A stretch of 64,000 nt of DNA, taken from contig NZ_RHNX01000011.1 of assembly GCF_003946335.1 (NCBI RefSeq), positions 1 through 64,000 of the forward strand. Direction: 5' to 3'. The stretch comes from Levilactobacillus fujinensis (lineage in GTDB: Bacteria; Bacillota; Bacilli; Lactobacillales; Lactobacillaceae). The notes beneath the pieces are model-generated. The model did no database searches. It saw nothing but the letters and a program-made list of their open reading frames with translations, and was not told where the DNA came from. Both the position numbers and the translations under genes were made by a program. This document shows positions 7,288 through 62,135 of the stretch, piece after piece. The stretch's first letter is position 1, and every line of letters begins with the position of its first letter.

Positions 7288-7356
7288 TTGTCCAATTTTA
7301 GGCTCTATATCGCTGTGATAACAGGCATAATGAGTGCTTTGAAACTTTCAACCTCA
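7288..7356 (-). repeat. Intergenic repeat family A, partial copy (A1)
   Basis: Read on the minus strand it gives the left part of family A: an ACTCATTATG block, an imperfect TTGT/ACAA palindrome and a CTAAAATTGG block. It lies just after the glycosyltransferase stop. Confidence 0.65.
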
Positions 7357-7418: not shown

Positions 7419-7634
7419 TAAGAGACTGGGACATAACTCAAAAAGTTGCTCCTTTCAGAATCTAATGATTTTGAAAGGAGCAACTTTTATTTACACTACT
7501 ATGGTGCTGAAACGTAGGACATAAGACAGTTCGTTGCGCTTAACCCTAGAGCAAAAAATATGTCAGAATCAGACAATAATCTCCACTATCACGTTAATGC
7601 TCGCAAACTAACCGTCTTATGCCCCACTCTCTTA
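7419..7634. repeat. Family C element with inverted ends (MITE-like), C1
   Basis: A 216-nt unit fills the gap between two convergent genes. It begins TAAGAGACTGGGACATAA (7419-7436) and ends with the inverted near-copy (7617-7634, two differences). The right end supplies the TAA stop of dapF. Inside are a strong hairpin (7441-7488), and the blocks at about 7515-7535 and 7592-7618 are also inverted relatives of each other. A second copy of the left half lies at 32677-32830. Confidence 0.7.
7441..7488 (+). terminator. Strong hairpin terminator within element C1
   Basis: A 22-bp stem (7441-7462 with 7467-7488, one mismatch) encloses the loop TAAT. A-rich and T-rich flanks allow termination on both strands, between the convergent glycosyltransferase and dapF genes. 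Confidence 0.8.
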
Positions 7635-10158: not shown

Positions 10159-10171
10159 GATGTCAATATCT

Positions 10172-10346
10172 AAGAGGTTGCAACCAACAGTAGTACGTAA
10201 GGGAGTCCCTGAGTGGACGATGAGCTTGCGGAAAGGGGCGGTTGCCGAAGCACCAGTTGACTCAGCGACTGGTTAGCTGGGCCGTTGATCTAAGAGGTCA
10301 CGGACTGTCGTAGCAAGATATCTGCTACGGGGTGCTTACGACGAAT
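10172..10346 (+). ncRNA. Lysine riboswitch (L-box) aptamer
   Basis: The conserved L-box landmarks appear in order: AGAGGTTGC at 10173, AGTA soon after, GGAAAGGGGCGG, TTGCCGAAGCACC, AGCTGGGCCGTTG, a GGTCACGGACTGTCG segment and a closing GGGGTGCTT. Lysine binding is expected to favour the downstream terminator (10371-10404) and shut off the + strand operon from lysA to asd. Confidence 0.92.
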
Positions 10347-16665: not shown

Positions 16666-17730
16666 ATGCAGGAAGGATTTACAGTTGCTATTTTAGGGGC
16701 AACGGGTGCTGTGGGAACCCGAATGGTGCAGCAGTTGGCCCAGTCGACAATTCCAGTGAAGACAGTCAAACTATTGGCGTCGGCCCGTTCTGCGGGGAAG
16801 CTTTTGTCATTTAAAGGACGCGCACTGAGGGTCGCAGCGACGACAGCTGAGTCGTTTGCAGGCATCGATCTGGTCTTGGCCTCCGCCGGGAGCACGGTGT
16901 CGCAACGATTCTTGCCAATTGCAGTTGAACAGGGTGCGGTCTGTGTTGACAATACCAGTGCTTTTCGAATGGATCCGACCGTGCCGTTAGTCGTCCCAGA
17001 GGTCAATAAAGAGATCTTACGACAGCATCACGGCATCATTGCGAATCCAAACTGTTCGACGATTCAAATGATGGTGGCATTAAACCCGATTCGCCGGGCG
17101 ATAGGGCTGAAACAAATCATCGTCTCGACGTATCAGGCAGCGTCAGGGGCCGGACAGTCGGGGTTGGACGAGTTTTATCAAGAAGCCAGAGATTATCTGG
17201 ATGAGCAACCCATGACGGCCGAGATTTTTCCAATCAAGGGTGATCATCAGCACTACCCGTTGGCCTTCAATCTATTACCGCAGATTGATATATTAGAGGA
17301 CAACTTATATTCGCATGAAGAGTGGAAAATGATTCATGAGACGAAGAAGATCATGTTGGGCGATATGAATGCCAGCGACATCAAAGTCACAGCGACCTGT
17401 GTGCGAGTACCAGTGCCATTCAGTCACGGTGAATCTATCTGGATTGACACTGGAAAGCCAGACGCGACGGTTGACCAAGTACGACAGGCCTTAGCGAATG
17501 CTCCAGGGGTCGTGCTGCAAGATGATCCGCGACATCAATTGTATCCGCAACCATTAAATGCAACCGGAACGCGTGAGACCTATGTTGGCCGAATTCGTCC
17601 AGACTTAGAGAATCCAGGTGCTTTTAACCTGTGGGTCGTGGCGGATAATTTGTTGAAAGGGGCGGCATGGAATACCGTTCAGGTTGCGGAATGCTTGGTG
17701 ACGGATGGACTGGTTCATGCGCCAGCTTGA
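16666..17730 (+). CDS. asd: Aspartate-semialdehyde dehydrogenase
   Basis: The 354-residue enzyme has the NADP-binding ILGATGAVG, the active-site Cys in NPNCSTIQ and the Gln-Ala-Ala-Ser-Gly stretch TYQAASGAGQSG. It reduces aspartyl phosphate to aspartate semialdehyde. The ATG at 16666 is preferred over 16651 because GGGGG at 16653-16657 is then 8 nt upstream. It is the last gene of the lysine operon and supplies the dapA substrate; with lysC it links the cluster to aspartate. Confidence 0.92.
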   Translation: MQEGFTVAILGATGAVGTRMVQQLAQSTIPVKTVKLLASARSAGKLLSFKGRALRVAATTAESFAGIDLVLASAGSTVSQRFLPIAVEQGAVCVDNTSAFRMDPTVPLVVPEVNKEILRQHHGIIANPNCSTIQMMVALNPIRRAIGLKQIIVSTYQAASGAGQSGLDEFYQEARDYLDEQPMTAEIFPIKGDHQHYPLAFNLLPQIDILEDNLYSHEEWKMIHETKKIMLGDMNASDIKVTATCVRVPVPFSHGESIWIDTGKPDATVDQVRQALANAPGVVLQDDPRHQLYPQPLNATGTRETYVGRIRPDLENPGAFNLWVVADNLLKGAAWNTVQVAECLVTDGLVHAPA

Positions 17731-17775
17731 TTGTGCCCGTCTTCAAACACTGAATTCCATGGAGTTGCTAAAGTT
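17731..17775. repeat. Repeat family D, copy 1
   Basis: The block with CCCGTC, then ACTGAATTCCAT right after the asd stop recurs at 34305-34352. In both places a minus-oriented family A copy follows, so D may be an outer part of family A. Confidence 0.5.
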
Positions 17776-17830
17776 TAAGCGTAATTCAATAACGATTTTA
17801 TAGGTACACTCCATATGCTGCATCAGGATA

Positions 17831-17988
17831 ACCACGTAGGCCGAGAGGTCAGCAGATATGGGATCAGGCGCGTTCACACCGTTTCTAGCCCCTGCCGACC
17901 GGTAAAGCGATGACTGGACGACATTGCCCAATTTTAGGGCCAGTATCGTTGCGATAACAGTCATAATGAGTGTTGTGGAGCTTTCAAG
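17831..17988 (-). repeat. Intergenic repeat family A copy (A2), internally shortened
   Basis: Read on the minus strand the left blocks (ACTCATTATG, the TTGC/GCAA-type palindrome, CTAAAATTGGGCAA, CATCGC, CCGGTCGGCAG) run directly into the right arm CCTGATCCCATATCTGC. The middle section present in other copies is missing. Confidence 0.7.
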
Positions 17989-18006
17989 CTTCGAAATAAG
18001 ATTCGA

Positions 18007-19257: not shown

Positions 19258-20055
19258 AGGTTGACCTCCTAGATGATTATAATAATTTTAGTATAGCACA
19301 GTGTTCTGAAAGGACCGGATTTGATTTTGGAAAGTATTGAGACAAGCCTCGTGAAAATATTGCAGAAACTACACGAGACGTTTCAAAGTAGCGTGCCATT
19401 GGCCTAATATGCGTTTTGATTCAGCATTTTATGGGGTAATCTAACTCTTGTCTTTTAGCAACTGATTTGTTGTGACCGATGTGTCATTCAATATATGCTT
19501 AAAGGCAAAGTAAAAACTAGATGGTTTTGAAGAGTGAGAATGTCAGTATAGCAACAACTTGGCAATGTATCTGAAGGATGAAAGTTCTAAAATACTCATT
19601 ATGATTGTTGTCACAACGATACGGAGACTAAAGTTGGGCAACGTCATCCAACTATTAGTAAACGTATACGAAGCTTATCCATGATCAAATGGCTCTATAT
19701 GAACAGAAAAATAGATAGAGAAGAGATGAAACCAGATTACAATAATGATGACGGTGGTCGCGTAACGCTCCCTGTATGTGATGTGCTATTTTGGATTCTT
19801 GTTAAGGTAAGACTGATTACCGATTTCCAGTAAAAACGATAGTTAAGTTTACAGCGAAGAAATCTAAAGGGTCGTTTCAGCAATTTTGGGTCATCACACG
19901 GTGTCACAGAAAGAATTGGCCAGAACCACGGCGCTACCAGGTATGCGGTTAGCGGTCTTATTTTTCGGTTTACTGAATTATTCCCCAAGAAATCAGTGTG
20001 GCCCTTGCTTTTCCTTAGGGGGTTTGCTAAGATGAAAATAATCTGATTAGACAAA
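19258..20055. other. Long gene-free region upstream of the leuS leader
   Basis: No protein gene is supported here. It contains the PAP2 promoter side, a possible decayed family A middle segment near 19335-19375 (GCCTCGTGAAAATATTG), the clear family A left part at 19560-19650, and otherwise unexplained AT-rich sequence. Open frames on the minus strand through 19737-20365 would be antisense to the leuS T-box and look like chance. Confidence 0.5.
19560..19650 (+). repeat. Intergenic repeat family A, left part (A3)
   Basis: The copy carries ACTCATTATGATTGTTG, the palindrome TTGTTGTCACAACGA and CTAAAGTTGGGCAAC, then loses similarity. Confidence 0.65.
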
Positions 20056-22753: not shown

Positions 22754-22766
22754 GCTAAACTAACTA

Positions 22767-22945
22767 AAAGTTGAAAGTTTCAAAACGTGTGTTATGACGG
22801 TGGTAACAGCGATTTCGAGACTGAAGTTGGGCAACTTAGTGCAGTTATCACCTTACCAGCCGGTAGATACGGGTTGGAACGGGACGAACACAACTTGAAG
22901 CCGCGAAAATATCGAGTTTCCAAGCTTGGTTTTCAGCTGCTTTAG
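22767..22945 (+). repeat. Intergenic repeat family A, long copy (A4)
   Basis: This copy sits in the leuS 3' untranslated region before the terminator. It shows the full left-to-middle order: AAAGTTTCAAAAC, the GTTATGACGG block, GGGCAACTTAG, CACCTTACCAGCCGGTAGATA, GGTTGGAACGGGACGAACAC, AACTTGAAGCCGCGAAAATA, CAAGCTTGGTTTTC. The right arm is absent. Confidence 0.8.
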
Positions 22946-22956
22946 CAAATTAAAAT

Positions 22957-23002
22957 GAAGTGTCGGTAACTTTCCAAATGGTGAGCTACCGGCACTTTTT
23001 AG
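22957..23002 (+). terminator. Terminator of leuS
   Basis: AAGTGTCGGTA pairs with TACCGGCACTT (one wobble) around a loop of about 17 nt, then Ts. It is separated from the leuS stop by repeat A4. Confidence 0.75.
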
Positions 23003-23152
23003 TTGGCAAAAATTACGGTTAGGGAGATAATTCGTGGCGATTTATGAGGAAGACGATTCTTGGAAATAAAACTAGATTAGTGAATTGCTACCGAATTTGG
23101 GATAGCAAAGTCCCTATTCTGTAAGCCAAGGATAATGAGGGAAGGGATTCTC

Positions 23153-23911
23153 GTGTGGCGTAAGTTAAATATTCTCAGTCGTTTTGAATTGCGACAGACC
23201 TGGGATGACAAGATGGTCTTATTTTATACGCTGATTGCACCCGTGGTTTTCTTTGTGATTACGGATCTTAGCTCAAACGGCCATCCATTTGGTGTTCATG
23301 ATTTGGCCTCACAGCTACTAGCCTATTGGGTCTACATTGTATTAGTGGGCGTTTTAAATGGGTTTCAGTTTACTCTGATTGGTATGCGCGAATCGAATTT
23401 TCTAAAGATGTTTACGGTGATTGCCGGTGATAAGCGATTGATCTTCTTCAGCAATCTTATTGTGCAGGTTCTATTTATTGAAGTTGAAGTCTTCTTTTTT
23501 GATTTAGTCGTGTTGGGCTTGAATCCGGCATCATTAACCTTACTCCCCATGATGGCGGGGGGATTACTGTTAAATGTGATCCTGATTCCAATCGTTGTGG
23601 GTTTCACGAACTTTCTACTGATTCTTCCCCTGCGCGTCAATCTAGTGTCTCTGATAACCGCGGGATATATCTTTGTGGGGATGTTTCTGATCAGCCCGGG
23701 GCTAGGATTAGCTCCCTGGATCAATGAGGTTCTAGCAGCCTTCAACCCTTGCTCATACATGATTCAATTCTACAGCGTGGGACTAGATATCCTGAGACGG
23801 GTAACGTTACTGCATGTCGGTTTGTTGACCGGAGTAGCGGTGTTTTACTTGCTCATTGGCTACTACCCAGTACGTCACATGAAGCTACAGTCGAATACGA
23901 ATCGTTACTGA
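23153..23911 (+). CDS. ABC-2 type transporter permease
   Basis: The 252-residue protein has a short charged N-terminus and about six membrane helices, starting with MVLFYTLIAPVVFFVI; this is the topology of ABC-2 exporter permeases. Two starts are possible: GTG 23153 with GAGGGAAGGG upstream, preferred here, or ATG 23135 with AAGGA only 3 nt away. The matching ATPase gene lies downstream at 24141 but is separated by a 229-nt gap holding repeat A5. The substrate (drug, peptide or polysaccharide) cannot be inferred. Confidence 0.8.
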   Translation: MWRKLNILSRFELRQTWDDKMVLFYTLIAPVVFFVITDLSSNGHPFGVHDLASQLLAYWVYIVLVGVLNGFQFTLIGMRESNFLKMFTVIAGDKRLIFFSNLIVQVLFIEVEVFFFDLVVLGLNPASLTLLPMMAGGLLLNVILIPIVVGFTNFLLILPLRVNLVSLITAGYIFVGMFLISPGLGLAPWINEVLAAFNPCSYMIQFYSVGLDILRRVTLLHVGLLTGVAVFYLLIGYYPVRHMKLQSNTNRY

Positions 23912-24102
23912 CATCTAAAACGGCTGTACTAAAATTGGGCTGAATGGTGGTCTCTTTGCCTTACTGGCCGGCAGATATAGACTGGAAGGGGATAAGCACC
24001 ACTTGAAGCCTCGAAAATGTCGCGCTGACAAACTTGGTTTTCTACAAGCCACCCACCGAATAAGCAGAATGACGTATCTAAGCCCATAATTGGCAACACT
24101 TG
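23912..24102 (+). repeat. Intergenic repeat family A copy inside an ABC operon (A5)
   Basis: It begins right after the permease stop and shows CTAAAATTGGGC, CTTACTGGCCGGCAGATATAGACTGG, CTTGAAGCCTCGAAAAT, AACTTGGTTTTCTAC and a right arm with GAATAAGCAGAATGACG and AAGCCCATAATTGGCAAC. Confidence 0.75.
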
Positions 24103-25892: not shown

Positions 25893-26159
25893 AGTAATCG
25901 CCTCACAATATTAAATCATCACTAAGTTGCGTACAATAAGTATACCGCATTTACTGGGGGAATGAGGATTAGGGATTTTCCTAAAATCAATGAAAATTGT
26001 GAAATTAAATGGTTAGATGACGCTGAAGTATGGTTATTGGTTAGCGCAACTGGTGATAGGGGCTTTAAAGCGGCTGCGGTGAGCGCTAAAATGATCACGT
26101 AAGCTTGCTGATTATTTTGCGTTGCACAAAGTAAACGAATCAGCAAGGATAGAAAAAAG

Positions 26160-26290
26160 GTCTAAAGAGTCCAAATACCCATCATGATTGTGTAATAATG
26201 CTAGTGTAACTAAAATTAGGCAACTTAAGTCGTTGCTTTATGGCTGGCAGGAGGTAGCCGAGAGCAGCCGTATTTGGCTATTCTTGAACC
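26160..26290 (+). repeat. Intergenic repeat family A, degraded copy (A6)
   Basis: CATCATGATTGT, a broken palindrome region, CTAAAATTAGGCAACTTAAGTCG and TTATGGCTGGCAGGAGGTAG can be aligned to family A. The gap 25893-26160 before it holds the promoter region of the flavodoxin-like gene and a doubtful 74-codon minus frame; nothing else is visible. Confidence 0.55.
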
Positions 26291-32385: not shown

Positions 32386-32399
32386 GGCTAAGACCTAAA

Positions 32400-32580
32400 G
32401 ATTAAAAGTGTCAAAACACCCATTATGCCTGTTGTAGCAACGATATTGTGGCCAAAATTAGGCAACTTAGTCCCGGCATCGCCTTGCCGACCGGCAGATA
32501 TGGATTGGAACGGTACGAACACAACTTGAAGCCGTGAAAGTACTGAGTCTTCAGGCTTGATTTTCTACTAAGCCAGCGGC
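32400..32580 (+). repeat. Intergenic repeat family A, long copy (A7)
   Basis: It shows the full left and middle blocks: AAAAGTGTCAAAACACCCATTATG, CTAAAATTAGGCAACTTAG style, CATCGCCTTGCCGACCGGCAGATATGG, TTGGAACGG, CAACTTGAAGCCG, and CTTGATTTTCTACTAAGCCAGC. It passes directly into family B. Confidence 0.8.
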
Positions 32581-32672
32581 ATCCTTGACAGCCGTAGTAC
32601 GGACATTTTCACTAATTTAGTCGTGACATTTCTCACTGTTGCAGCGTAAAATGAACATTTTGGCTGTCAACC
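32573..32672 (+). repeat. Intergenic repeat family B copy (B2)
   Basis: Landmarks are AGCCAGCGGCATCCTTGACAG, TTTTCACTAATTTAGTCGTGAC and TTCTCACTGTTGCAGCGTAAAATG. It abuts A7, so A and B may be parts of one larger ancestral unit. Confidence 0.65.
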
Positions 32673-32676
32673 TTCA

Positions 32677-32830
32677 GCTAAGACTAAAAACTGGGATATA
32701 ATTTAAAAAGTTGCTCTTTTCAGAATCGTTAGGTTCTGAAAGGAGCAACTTTTATTTACGCCATTATGGTGACGAAACGTGCATTATAAGGCAGTTTGTT
32801 GTGCTTAACCCGATAGCAAAAGTTATGCCA
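32677..32830 (+). repeat. Family C element, left half copy (C2)
   Basis: ACTGGGATATAA is followed by the 22-bp hairpin (32706-32727 with 32732-32753), TTTATTTACG, GGTGACGAAACGT, and GTTGTGCTTAACCC, all matching 7430-7555. Two stem positions differ from C1 as G.U-tolerant changes, so the fold is kept. The hairpin can act as terminator for the usp transcript. Confidence 0.75.
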
Positions 32831-32839
32831 GCTGGCATA

Positions 32840-33030
32840 CGGAATCATAATGTAAGCTGAGAGGTCGCCAGTTTCAGGTACGTTGTTCTGCTTAGTCGGC
32901 ATTTTGGGCTGGCCTAGCAGAAAATCAAGCTTGTAGATACGTGGTTTTCAAGGCGTGAAGCCGGGTTCACGCCGTTTCAGTCCATAACTGGTGGTCGGCA
33001 AGGTGAAAAGGCCACCGTGTTGCCCAATCG
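32840..33030 (-). repeat. Intergenic repeat family A, long inverted copy (A8)
   Basis: Read on the minus strand it has GGGCAACACGG, CACCTTGCCGACC, ATGGACTGAAACGG, ACGCCTTGAAAACC, CAAGCTTGATTTTCTGCTAGGCCAGC and then the right arm with GACTAAGCAGAACAACG. It ends against the nucleoside hydrolase stop codon and is inverted with respect to A7. Confidence 0.75.
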
Positions 33031-33972: not shown

Positions 33973-34187
33973 GCCAAAACACTCCTTATATGATTACAAA
34001 TTCTCAAAAGTATAGCATATAAGTTCGTGATTTAACAGCTAAAACAGGTAAAAATTTATTTTTAGGCAAAGGTAAAACGTAAAACCCGAAATATAAATCG
34101 ATTTACCCTTTTAAAAAATACTAATCAAATTAAAGTCAATATTAGTTTGTTGGCTGACCTGTTTTACTGGGAAGCAGAAAACTAAAA

Positions 34188-34297
34188 TATTCACGTTACG
34201 CTTGCGATTGTGGGAAGGATCACGGTTAAATTAATGAAAACAGCCGGCCAGGGATTTCGCTGGCTGTGGGGAATGTCTCCGGTCAAAGAACTGGCGC
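34188..34297 (-). repeat. Intergenic repeat family B copy (B3)
   Basis: Read on the minus strand it has CAGCGAAATCCCTGGC, TTAATTTAACCGTGATCC and CGTAACGTGA blocks. The segment to 34297 (GGAATGTCTCCGGTCAAAGAAC on the + strand) matches the flank of copy B4 at 40862-40890. The AT-rich stretch 33973-34187 before it is the nucleoside hydrolase promoter side, with nothing else visible. Confidence 0.6.
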
Positions 34298-34304
34298 CCG
34301 GCTC

Positions 34305-34420
34305 AGATTGTCCCCGTCAATTTCAAGTACTGAATTCCATACGGTCGCTTCAGCTTGAACATGAATCATTAGCGTTGTAACGACAGTCATAACAGGCATC
34401 TGGGATACATTAAACCTTCA
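34305..34420 (-). repeat. Repeat family D copy 2 joined to a family A left part (A9)
   Basis: CCCCGTC with AAGTACTGAATTCCAT matches 17731-17775, and then CATTAGCGTTGTAACGACAG with TCATAACAGG matches the reverse of the family A left blocks. Confidence 0.55.
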
Positions 34421-46139: not shown

Positions 46140-46320
46140 TTAGAATTGGTGGTATTGTGTGTCATTCACTTTACTGGTCGGTAGATATGAACTGGAGCGG
46201 TGCGAGCACACCTTGAAGCCTCGAGAGTGCCGAGCCTGTAAGGATGGCTTTTGCTAAACCATCAAGAATACCGACCGAGTAGAACGACGCAGTTAAGCTC
46301 ATATTTGCCGAGTCTTGGTT
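46140..46320 (+). repeat. Intergenic repeat family A, middle and right arm (A10)
   Basis: CTTTACTGGTCGGTAGATATGAACTGGAGCGG, CTTGAAGCCTCGAGAGTGCC and a right arm with CCGACCGAGTAGAACGACG and AAGCTCATATTTGCC. It occupies most of the coaE-nrdR gap; the rest of that gap up to 46459 shows no other feature. Confidence 0.7.
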
Positions 46321-46459
46321 TACACAGAATGTAAGGTGTGCAATGTATCTGTAGCTTTGAACTGTTGGTTATAGAGTTAGTGCGACCAGCCTATACAATT
46401 TTAAAAATGTATTTGATGATGAGAGAAAAACGGAAATAAATTTAGCGAGGTGACCAAAT

Positions 46460-53599: not shown

Positions 53600-53734
53600 G
53601 AAATTAAGCAGAGGCTTCCGCTTCTCGCCTTATGACGTAGGTTATTGGGCTGGATATGCACGTTATCTAATCATTTAGATTGGATTTTGGTGCGGGAGCC
53701 GTTTGATTTTCATCAAAGGTTCCCGCATTTTTTT
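53600..53734 (+). promoter_or_regulatory. infC-rpmI-rplT leader with attenuator
   Basis: A structured leader of about 190 nt precedes infC. It ends in a long stem TGCGGGA...TCCCGCA (53691-53727) with an inner TTTGAT/ATCAAA helix and a seven-T tail. In Bacillus the operon is controlled by L20 binding its leader and causing early termination; the same is plausible here, but I could not confirm the L20 site. Confidence 0.7.
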
Positions 53735-53783
53735 GTGAGTGAGATTTCTGCAGTTCTCGAGATTATTTTGGAGGTGGATTACC

Positions 53784-55017: not shown

Positions 55018-55034
55018 ATTAGCCATCACTGGCA

Positions 55035-55245
55035 ACACTAGCCATGAAGCTGGCGGCATAGTGTTGTCTTTGCTTTACTGGTCGGTAGATATGGGCTGAA
55101 AAGGGTGCGGGTGCAATTTGAAGCTTCGAAAACCGGGAGTCTTCAAGTCTGTCGTTCAACTAAGCCAGTAGGCAGTTCACAGCTCACCGACTGACTGAGT
55201 AGAACGACACGCCTGAGTCCATATCTAGCAACTATGGTGCAATAA
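55035..55245 (+). repeat. Intergenic repeat family A with both hairpin arms (A11)
   Basis: The left arm TAGATATGG (after CTTTACTGGTCGG) at about 55086 can pair with CCATATCTA in the right arm at about 55219, after GAGTAGAACGACACGCCTGAG. Middle blocks TTGAAGCTTCGAAAA and CTTCAAGTCTG are present. It fills the gap before yqeG. Confidence 0.75.
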
Positions 55246-61844: not shown

Positions 61845-62135
61845 GCGCAACGGTTGCCGGCTGGTAAGGCGATGATTGGACAAGACTGGCTTTTATCCTA
61901 CGTTTCAGCAATGTAAATTCGGAAATACCAAGGGAGTCTGAGGTTTTATTCTAGGCCCTTAATTTCTAGGTTCAGTATCGTTGTGACAACAATCGTAAGT
62001 CATATTTTTATTCGTCCTTCACCCGTAATAATACAGCGCAAAATGGACTCTAAACTCGAATGGTAACAAGCGTGGTGCCTATTCACCGTGGGGGCTAGTG
62101 CCAGTTGAAGCCCCCCGAGGTTGCTAATTTGTATG
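61845..62135 (-). repeat. Broken family A repeat (A12)
   Basis: On the minus strand, ATGATTGTTG-like blocks with the palindrome TTGTTGTCACAACGA (61980-62000) and CATCGCCTTACCAGCCGG (61852-61875) are family A parts, separated by about 60 nt of unrelated sequence. A TTGAAGCCCCCCGAGG block near 62115 is in + orientation. The copy looks rearranged. The remaining gap to 62235 shows no gene. Confidence 0.5.

What the first reader, a model, noticed from the sequence alone, without database searches (positions are those of the whole stretch)
22767..24102. Dispersed degenerate intergenic repeat (family A) in about a dozen gaps
Similar non-coding sequence occurs at about 7288, 17831, 19560, 22767, 23912, 26160, 32400, 32840, 34340, 46140, 55035 and 61845, in both orientations. 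Blocks recur in fixed order: ACTCATTATG, palindrome TTGTTGTCACAACGA, CTAAAATTGGGCAA, CATCGCCTTACC, CGGCAGATATGG, CAACTTGAAGCC, CAAGCTTGGTTTTC. No open frame is shared and copies end at gene borders. I know no named element with this layout. At this density the genome would hold hundreds of copies (inference).
Basis: partly seen in the sequence, partly recalled or inferred. Interest (0 to 1): 0.75.

Follow-up and report, generated by a model that had tools for sequence, protein, structure and literature searches.

The report
Jumping DNA carrying twin folded RNAs
The scattered repeats are remains of a short jumping DNA element, present in an estimated few hundred copies in this lactic acid bacterium, whose interior holds two back-to-back copies of a folded RNA that is conserved across several lactobacillus genera and matches no RNA family in the library searched.

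Summary
In detail: all 12 listed places carry the repeat (two weakly), and at least 3 more were missed. Most are fragments of an element of about 550-630 nt. Intact copies end in 14-nt inverted repeats (CTRAAGGTTGAAAG); 25 of 48 TIR-bounded elements have flanking direct repeats of 7 nt or more (1.4% in shuffled flanks). An IS4-family insertion sequence in a congener has the same ends and an 8-bp duplication, so the elements are best read as MITEs mobilised by it in trans. The new part is the interior: two inverted copies of a ~180-nt structured motif. In a 40-sequence cross-genus alignment, 468 cells (49 of 53 pairs) change on both sides, against at most 116 cells when slid. G-U exceeds A-C on the motif's own strand, pointing to RNA. 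Neighbouring motifs under 600 nt apart are divergent in 33 of 34 cases. The motif occurs in 45 of 201 Lactobacillaceae genomes (9 of 40 genera) and matches no Rfam family. Against a simple MITE reading: ten Companilactobacillus pairs showed no such ends, and the window's genome has no match to this transposase. The RNA's function is inferred, not shown.

The parts
32395..32677 (+). complete, internally deleted copy (283 nt) from CTAAAGATTA to CAACCTTCAG; the right half of domain I and most of domain III are missing
   Evidence: (L131 1506-1788)
32388..32394 (.). target-site duplication CTAAGAC, left
32678..32684 (.). target-site duplication CTAAGAC, right
22766..22947 (+). left-end fragment (model 2-183) between the leuS stop codon and a terminator-like hairpin; absent at that site in the relative L031
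23903..24096 (+). fragment with domain I (model from 21)
7288..7355 (-). left-end fragment (model 3-70)
17727..17992 (-). copy lacking the core hairpin (model 2-125 joined to 213-360)
19572..19655 (+). left-end fragment (model 1-84)
   Evidence: (R1 E 1e-5)
26157..26250 (+). left-end fragment (model 3-102); not reported by the second model
   Evidence: E 1e-6; not
32842..33030 (-). domain I fragment (model 62-260)
34176..34414 (-). right-side fragment including domain III remains
   Evidence: (R1 E 0.014)
   Evidence: (R1 E 0.0087)
46155..46329 (+). domain I fragment (model 84-254)
55033..55232 (+). domain I fragment (model 66-238)
61855..62007 (-). two short weak pieces (model 71-101 and 19-61); not reported by the second model
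   Evidence: E 2e-5 and 3e-4; not

Best explanation
Family A is a MITE-like non-autonomous transposon. Intact copies in this genome are about 550-630 nt, start CT(A/G)AAGGTTGAAAG, end with the reverse complement and duplicate about 7-8 bp on insertion. An IS4-family insertion sequence with the same ends moves them in trans (inferred from shared ends and duplication length; not shown by experiment). Between the ends lie two inverted, paralogous copies of one structured motif of about 160-185 nt (domain I on the minus strand, domain III on the plus strand), with 5' ends facing each other and 3' ends outward. Covariation and the G-U/A-C asymmetry say that each motif is kept as a folded RNA (or single-stranded DNA) on its own strand. 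My inference for its function: it acts in cis in transcripts that read into the element. With a divergent pair, RNA entering from either side acquires one motif in sense, so the function is independent of insertion orientation; a likely role is protecting or processing RNA at gene 3' ends, which makes insertions tolerable and so lets copies accumulate. Shown: TIRs, duplications, a site without the insert in a relative, an IS with the same ends, covariation, divergent pairing. Inferred: mobilisation in trans (about 0.9), RNA rather than ssDNA (about 0.75), the 3'-end role (about 0.3).
For: TIR pattern 78+92 sites in the own genome against 2+2 for the reversed control, a stricter form in 23 of 35 genus genomes. 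25 of 48 TIR pairs (at 45 places, three being overlapping choices of end) have a perfect flanking direct repeat of 7-9 nt, against 1.4% with shuffled flanks. Site without the insert at leuS in L031. IS in L380: 1559 bp, perfect TIRs, duplication CTGATTAA, 450-aa transposase matching NF049925 (IS4 family, 470 bits, cut-off 250); the TIR (0-2 mismatches) lies beside relatives 68-85% identical to that transposase in L396, L397, L401-L404 and the L. plantarum plasmid locus L410. Covariation: A1 23 of 39 pairs and 155 cells with both-side changes (slid: 4-8 pairs, 4-25 cells); A3 49 of 53 pairs and 468 cells (slid: 27-35 pairs, 70-116 cells), score 0.635 against at most 0.126. Fold z -11.8, -4.3, -7.3. 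A3 alifold -60.0 forward, -34.0 reverse; G-U 57 against A-C 24 in pairs found on both strands, p 3e-4; domain I, read on the plus strand, shows the mirror, 11 against 29, p 0.006. Of neighbouring motif hits under 600 nt apart 33 of 34 are divergent (14 pairs, 20, one place in both; the exception is a weak extra hit in L298).
Against: 23 of 48 TIR pairs show no such repeat. Of 33 motif-pair loci scanned de novo for TIR plus duplication only L288, L328 and weakly L330 gave a result; none of the 10 Companilactobacillus pairs (L311-L319, L290), none of the two from the own genus (L284, L285) and 2 of 9 from L. xiangfangensis did, so these ends do not explain those copies. The transposase has no match at E<=1e-20 in the window's genome. 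In A1, on pairs found on both strands, G-U and A-C are equal (19 and 18). Both counted structures came from the same alignments, which favours them over slid versions, and the counts are not corrected for phylogeny. No transcript data were available. The motifs are not AT-rich as MITEs usually are (GC 0.44-0.69). The IS interior does not match the element model, so the element is not a simple internal deletion of this IS. The window's own complete copy does not fold significantly better than shuffles (z -1.47, 16 of 200 as good).
Confidence: 0.82

Rival explanations
1. The folding is a DNA matter: the motifs are hairpin or cruciform sites at each transposon end, read by the transposase, and the paired changes come from template switching that corrects quasi-palindromes rather than from selection on RNA.
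For: Inverted placement near both ends; domain III also matches the model on its antisense strand; G-U equals A-C within A1.
Against: Across genera G-U exceeds A-C (57 to 24) and the sense strand folds much better. Unpaired positions are kept, for example the fully conserved A108 and G129 facing each other inside a helix, which template correction should erase. The IS with the same ends has no match to the element model.
Confidence: 0.2
2. The motif is a bidirectional transcription terminator spread between genes.
For: Places in convergent gaps 16 of 46 against 59 of 281 gaps (p 0.057); divergent gaps avoided, 4 of 46 against 64 of 281 (p 0.03). Terminator-like sites within 90 nt downstream in 11 of 64 motif hits against 18 of 320 random stretches.
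Against: Only 2 of 64 motif hits have TTTT within 12 nt of their 3' end; the conserved branched fold is far more than a terminator needs.
Confidence: 0.12
3. The RNA acts in trans, as a guide or cofactor for the transposase or as a regulatory small RNA with many copies.
For: RNA-like conservation across genera; mobile elements with a functional RNA exist (IS110 bridge RNA, PMC11208160, title and start of abstract in the listing only).
Against: Hundreds of decaying copies, the pairing and the absence of a transposase match from the window's genome fit a cis role better; no target-matching segment was looked for.
Confidence: 0.25
4. REP/BIME-like repeats moved by a Y1 (HUH) transposase.
For: BIMEs are also inverted pairs of structured repeats (recalled).
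Against: No Y1_Tnp match in 6 of 9 genomes searched (G000, G060, G269, G268, G271, G257), all six of which hold 23 or more copies by model count or estimate; target duplications do not fit Y1 transposition (recalled).
Confidence: 0.03

Closest known systems
MITEs, e.g. QMITE2 of Coxiella burnetii (PMC10969869, passages seen)
   Same: TIRs, 7-9 bp direct repeats, short core, strongly folded predicted transcript, preference for intergenic regions
   Different: here the core holds two inverted copies of a motif that covaries across genera; not AT-rich; about 600 nt
BOX, RUP and SPRITE of Streptococcus pneumoniae (PMC3049150, passages seen)
   Same: dispersed intergenic repeats with predicted RNA folds; BOX is modular
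   Different: that paper finds them less frequent in S. mitis and very infrequent in other streptococci; here the motif spans 9 genera, with many both-side changes and divergent pairing. No sequence comparison with BOX or RUP was made
Correia elements, REP/BIME, ERIC (passages in PMC3049150 and PMC2267715)
   Same: small intergenic repeats, some reported to affect mRNA processing or stability
   Different: different lengths and ends (from the passages); no Y1 transposase in 6 of 9 genomes tested
IS4-family insertion sequence with transposase NF049925
   Same: same 14-nt TIR and 8-bp duplication
   Different: 1559 bp with a transposase gene; interior without match to the element model
IS110 bridge RNA (PMC11208160, title and abstract start in a listing only)
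   Same: mobile element with a structured RNA
   Different: IS110 encodes its recombinase (recalled); no recombinase gene was seen in this element

Membership tests
MITE | terminal inverted repeats | tested here: met
MITE | target-site duplications | tested here: met
   25 of 48 TIR pairs, 1.4% in shuffled flanks; not found in 10 Companilactobacillus pairs
MITE | no transposase gene inside | tested here: met
   no ORF of 90 aa or more inside the complete window copy; other copies were not scanned for ORFs
MITE | ends shared with an autonomous element | tested here: met
   IS in L380, relatives
MITE | AT-rich (typical, not defining) | tested here: not met
   motif GC 0.44-0.69; window GC 0.48
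MITE | moved in trans by that transposase | not testable with these tools
   needs a transposition assay
any Rfam 15 RNA family | covariance-model match at gathering score | tested here: not met
   gathering scan of the window finds only a lysine riboswitch and an L20 leader, 14 loci with intact copies, list only matches below gathering score
tRNA/tmRNA | ARAGORN match | tested here: not met
   0 in 8 loci
REP/BIME with RAYT | Y1 transposase in the genome | tested here: not met
   absent in 6 of 9 genomes
intrinsic terminator | U-run after the hairpin | tested here: not met
   2 of 64
BOX element | boxA-boxB-boxC sequence modules | not tested
   no BOX sequence was compared

The most novel reading that the evidence does not exclude
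A divergent pair of a new structured RNA class is itself the selfish or useful unit. It has spread through Lactobacillaceae genomes by more than one route, borrowing the ends of an IS4-family transposon in this genus and in Lactiplantibacillus and spreading without them in Companilactobacillus, because the RNA gives a function (orientation-independent RNA processing, or a role in mobility) that natural selection keeps.
Probability: 0.35. Interest if true: 0.9.

Novelty: new variant of a known kind. Interest (0 to 1): 0.75.

Why it matters
MITEs are usually seen as decaying transposon ends with incidental folds. Here a MITE-sized element carries a fold whose pairs are kept across genera, in an estimated few hundred copies per genome, in food-associated bacteria that can be grown in the laboratory. 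That makes it testable why a non-coding transposon keeps a complex RNA, and adds a structured RNA family absent from Rfam 15.

Tried and rejected
Searched without result: Rfam, tRNA (95), plasmids and phages by blastn with one element from the genus and one from Lactiplantibacillus (49, 50, 96, 97), and literature on the repeat (18, 31, 32, 60, 61, 66, 91, 124). The negative plasmid and phage results are at blastn sensitivity only.

Two exact TIR matches in viral contigs (51) do not hold the element (52). ORFs near orphan TIRs (77) did not at first show the partner. Of the 64 transposase loci only L380 has the TIRs around its transposase gene; the other six with a TIR-like site (L347, L350, L374, L378, L381, L388) were not examined further. 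G032:C141, looked at as a possible autonomous element with a long spacer, turned out to be separate copies (74, 75). The tree of motif copies (99) does not cleanly separate left and right copies across genera.

Full report
Observation. The same profile finds nothing in 80 control loci from other bacteria; a second, genus-wide profile no longer reports the places at 26157 and 61855. In 464 kb of this genome (the window plus 20 stretches of 20 kb at round positions, taken on contigs that had shown a match, so perhaps somewhat rich) there are 52 merged places, 12 of them in the window: 0.11 per kb, or about 340 per genome. The own genome is G000, 3,007,089 bases in 103 contigs.

The unit. Aligning own-genome matches showed that the 175-nt core seen first continues to the right, and intact copies run 552-626 nt. 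Their ends are inverted repeats CT(A/G)AAGGTTGAAAG. That pattern with up to two mismatches occurs 78+92 times in the genome against 2+2 for the reversed control, and a stricter form in 23 of 35 genomes of the genus, the own one included. Of 48 TIR pairs (45 places) in the DNA fetched by then, 25 have a perfect flanking direct repeat of 7-9 nt, against 1.4% with shuffled flanks. The window holds one such copy, 32395-32677, with CTAAGAC on both sides. At leuS, the relative L031 (LeuRS 95% identical) has about 30 nt between stop codon and a terminator-like hairpin, while the window has a 182-nt fragment there. Several copies lack the same inner hairpins, for example model positions 92-128 joined to 213-245, or 368 to 530.

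The mobilising partner. Among 64 transposase loci looked at (Y1, IS256, ISL3 and IS4-type), 7 have a TIR-like site and one, L380 in congener G018, has perfect TIRs 1559 bp apart around a 450-aa transposase, with the duplication CTGATTAA. The protein is an IS4-family transposase (NF049925, 470 bits, cut-off 250). At E<=1e-20 matches are found in 14 of 35 genus genomes, many of them fragments, but not in G000. Relatives 68-85% identical (L396, L397, L401-L404, and the decayed copy on an L. plantarum plasmid, L410) have the same TIR nearby; relatives near 50% identity (L398, L411, L412) have CTGAAACTTGAAAG instead. So ends and transposase change together, and family A carries the ends of one subgroup. 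The IS interior has no match to the element model.

The interior. In 39 near-full-length copies, 12 from the own genome and 27 from nine other genomes of the genus (G001, G002, G010, G011, G018, G023, G025, G027, G028), two regions hold most consensus pairs. Domain III in 42 sequences (36 from the genus, 6 from Lactiplantibacillus xiangfangensis): 39 pairs, 23 with changes on both sides, 96.3% of cells paired, no slid version above 45.5%. Its covariance model R1 also hits domain I, on the opposite strand (L174 E 1e-11, L133 2e-9, L200 4e-7, L019 7e-6): the element contains two inverted paralogs. Across genera (A3, 40 sequences, 57% mean column identity, MAFFT without structure) 49 of 53 pairs have both-side changes, 468 such cells against 123 in shuffles; slid versions give 27-35 pairs and 70-116 cells. 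The structures were predicted on the same alignments, and these counts do not correct for phylogeny. In L255, L256, L259, L260 and L261 the fold is a long closing stem, a three-way junction with hairpin P2, a second stem and a second three-way junction with hairpins P3 and P4; the single-sequence folds of L019, L174 and L244 differ in part.

Strand. Domain III folds better on the plus strand (-30 against -16) and domain I on the minus strand (-82 against -54). On A3 the sense strand gives -60, the reverse -34, and in pairs predicted on both strands G-U outnumbers A-C 57 to 24. Within A1 alone the two are equal, 19 and 18, perhaps because copies drift after insertion; domain I, read on the plus strand, shows 11 to 29, the mirror image. 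This favours selection on the motif's own strand, as RNA or ssDNA.

Arrangement. Leaving out hits that overlap a stronger hit on the other strand, neighbouring motif hits under 600 nt apart are divergent in 14 of 14 cases and 20 of 21 (the exception is an extra weak same-strand hit in L298), with one place in both calls: 33 of 34. They are not all independent: L291-L293 look like the same two sites in three species, and several regions were fetched because hits lay close together, some divergent and some in tandem. In the capped list a further look gives 22 of 22 divergent, three of them places already counted (L241, L290 and the like). In five elements of the genus (L019, L133, L174, L200, L291) the two motifs of one element are 53% identical while each is 86% or 78% identical across species; L284, L285 and L298 were left out of that figure. 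Gaps between divergent genes are avoided (4 of 46 against 64 of 281, p 0.03) and convergent gaps perhaps favoured (16 of 46 against 59 of 281, p 0.057); of 52 places 3 lay in ORFs and 3 at an edge.

Distribution. R1 at E<=1e-4 matches 45 of 201 Lactobacillaceae genomes, 9 of 40 genera; at most 13 candidates per genome were scored there. That the family is Lactobacillaceae follows from G173 being the S. angelensis genome. In 23 named genomes 8 match: Companilactobacillus hulinensis 114, Lactiplantibacillus xiangfangensis 113 (115 candidates scored in each), C. tucceti 30, L. daowaiensis 26, Pediococcus damnosus 24, C. jidongensis 23, C. musae 15, Secundilactobacillus angelensis 6; the other 15 (including three Lentilactobacillus, two Enterococcus, Bacillus and Listeria) have none. 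TIR plus duplication recur in L. xiangfangensis (L241, by eye; L328) and in L288 (genus g55), but in 33 motif-pair loci scanned only three gave any result, and none of 10 from Companilactobacillus. Neighbouring copies about 3.7 kb apart in G007, G009 and G032 suggest old insertions kept by descent; their flanks were not compared.

Mechanism and limits. Transposition by an IS4-type transposase in trans explains ends, duplications, the site without insert and spread in this genus. It does not explain why the interior keeps an RNA fold, nor the Companilactobacillus copies. A divergent pair guarantees that RNA entering from either side contains one sense motif; I infer a cis role at gene 3' ends. 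The motif is no intrinsic terminator (2 of 64 with a U-run). No expression data were available, the window's species and genus are unnamed, and no claim of absence from print goes beyond the nine paper searches.

Noticed in passing
window 7425-7620 and 32690-32831: A second repeat family of about 196 nt with a 48-nt inverted repeat; blastn at E<=1e-4 finds 9 more places in 8 of the 20 other own-genome stretches (L116, L119 twice, L121-L126).
   Followed up: partly
window 10164-10345: Lysine riboswitch (RF00168, E 8e-23).
   Followed up: no
window 53600-53740: Ribosomal protein L20 leader (RF00558, E 2e-10).
   Followed up: no
own-genome copies, e.g. L158, L159, L166, L125:13483-13992: Recurrent internal deletions whose ends lie near hairpin bases (model about 92-128 to 213-245, and 368 to 530), as if whole hairpins were excised.
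   Followed up: partly
L411, L412, L398: A sister IS4-family subgroup (about 50% identical transposase) has TIR CTGAAACTTGAAAG; in L411 the flanks repeat TAAACCTAA. MITEs with that TIR were not looked for.
   Followed up: no
L311, L320, L321, L290: Seen by eye: spacers of over about 100 nt between the two motifs can contain a terminator-like hairpin with a T-run.
   Followed up: no
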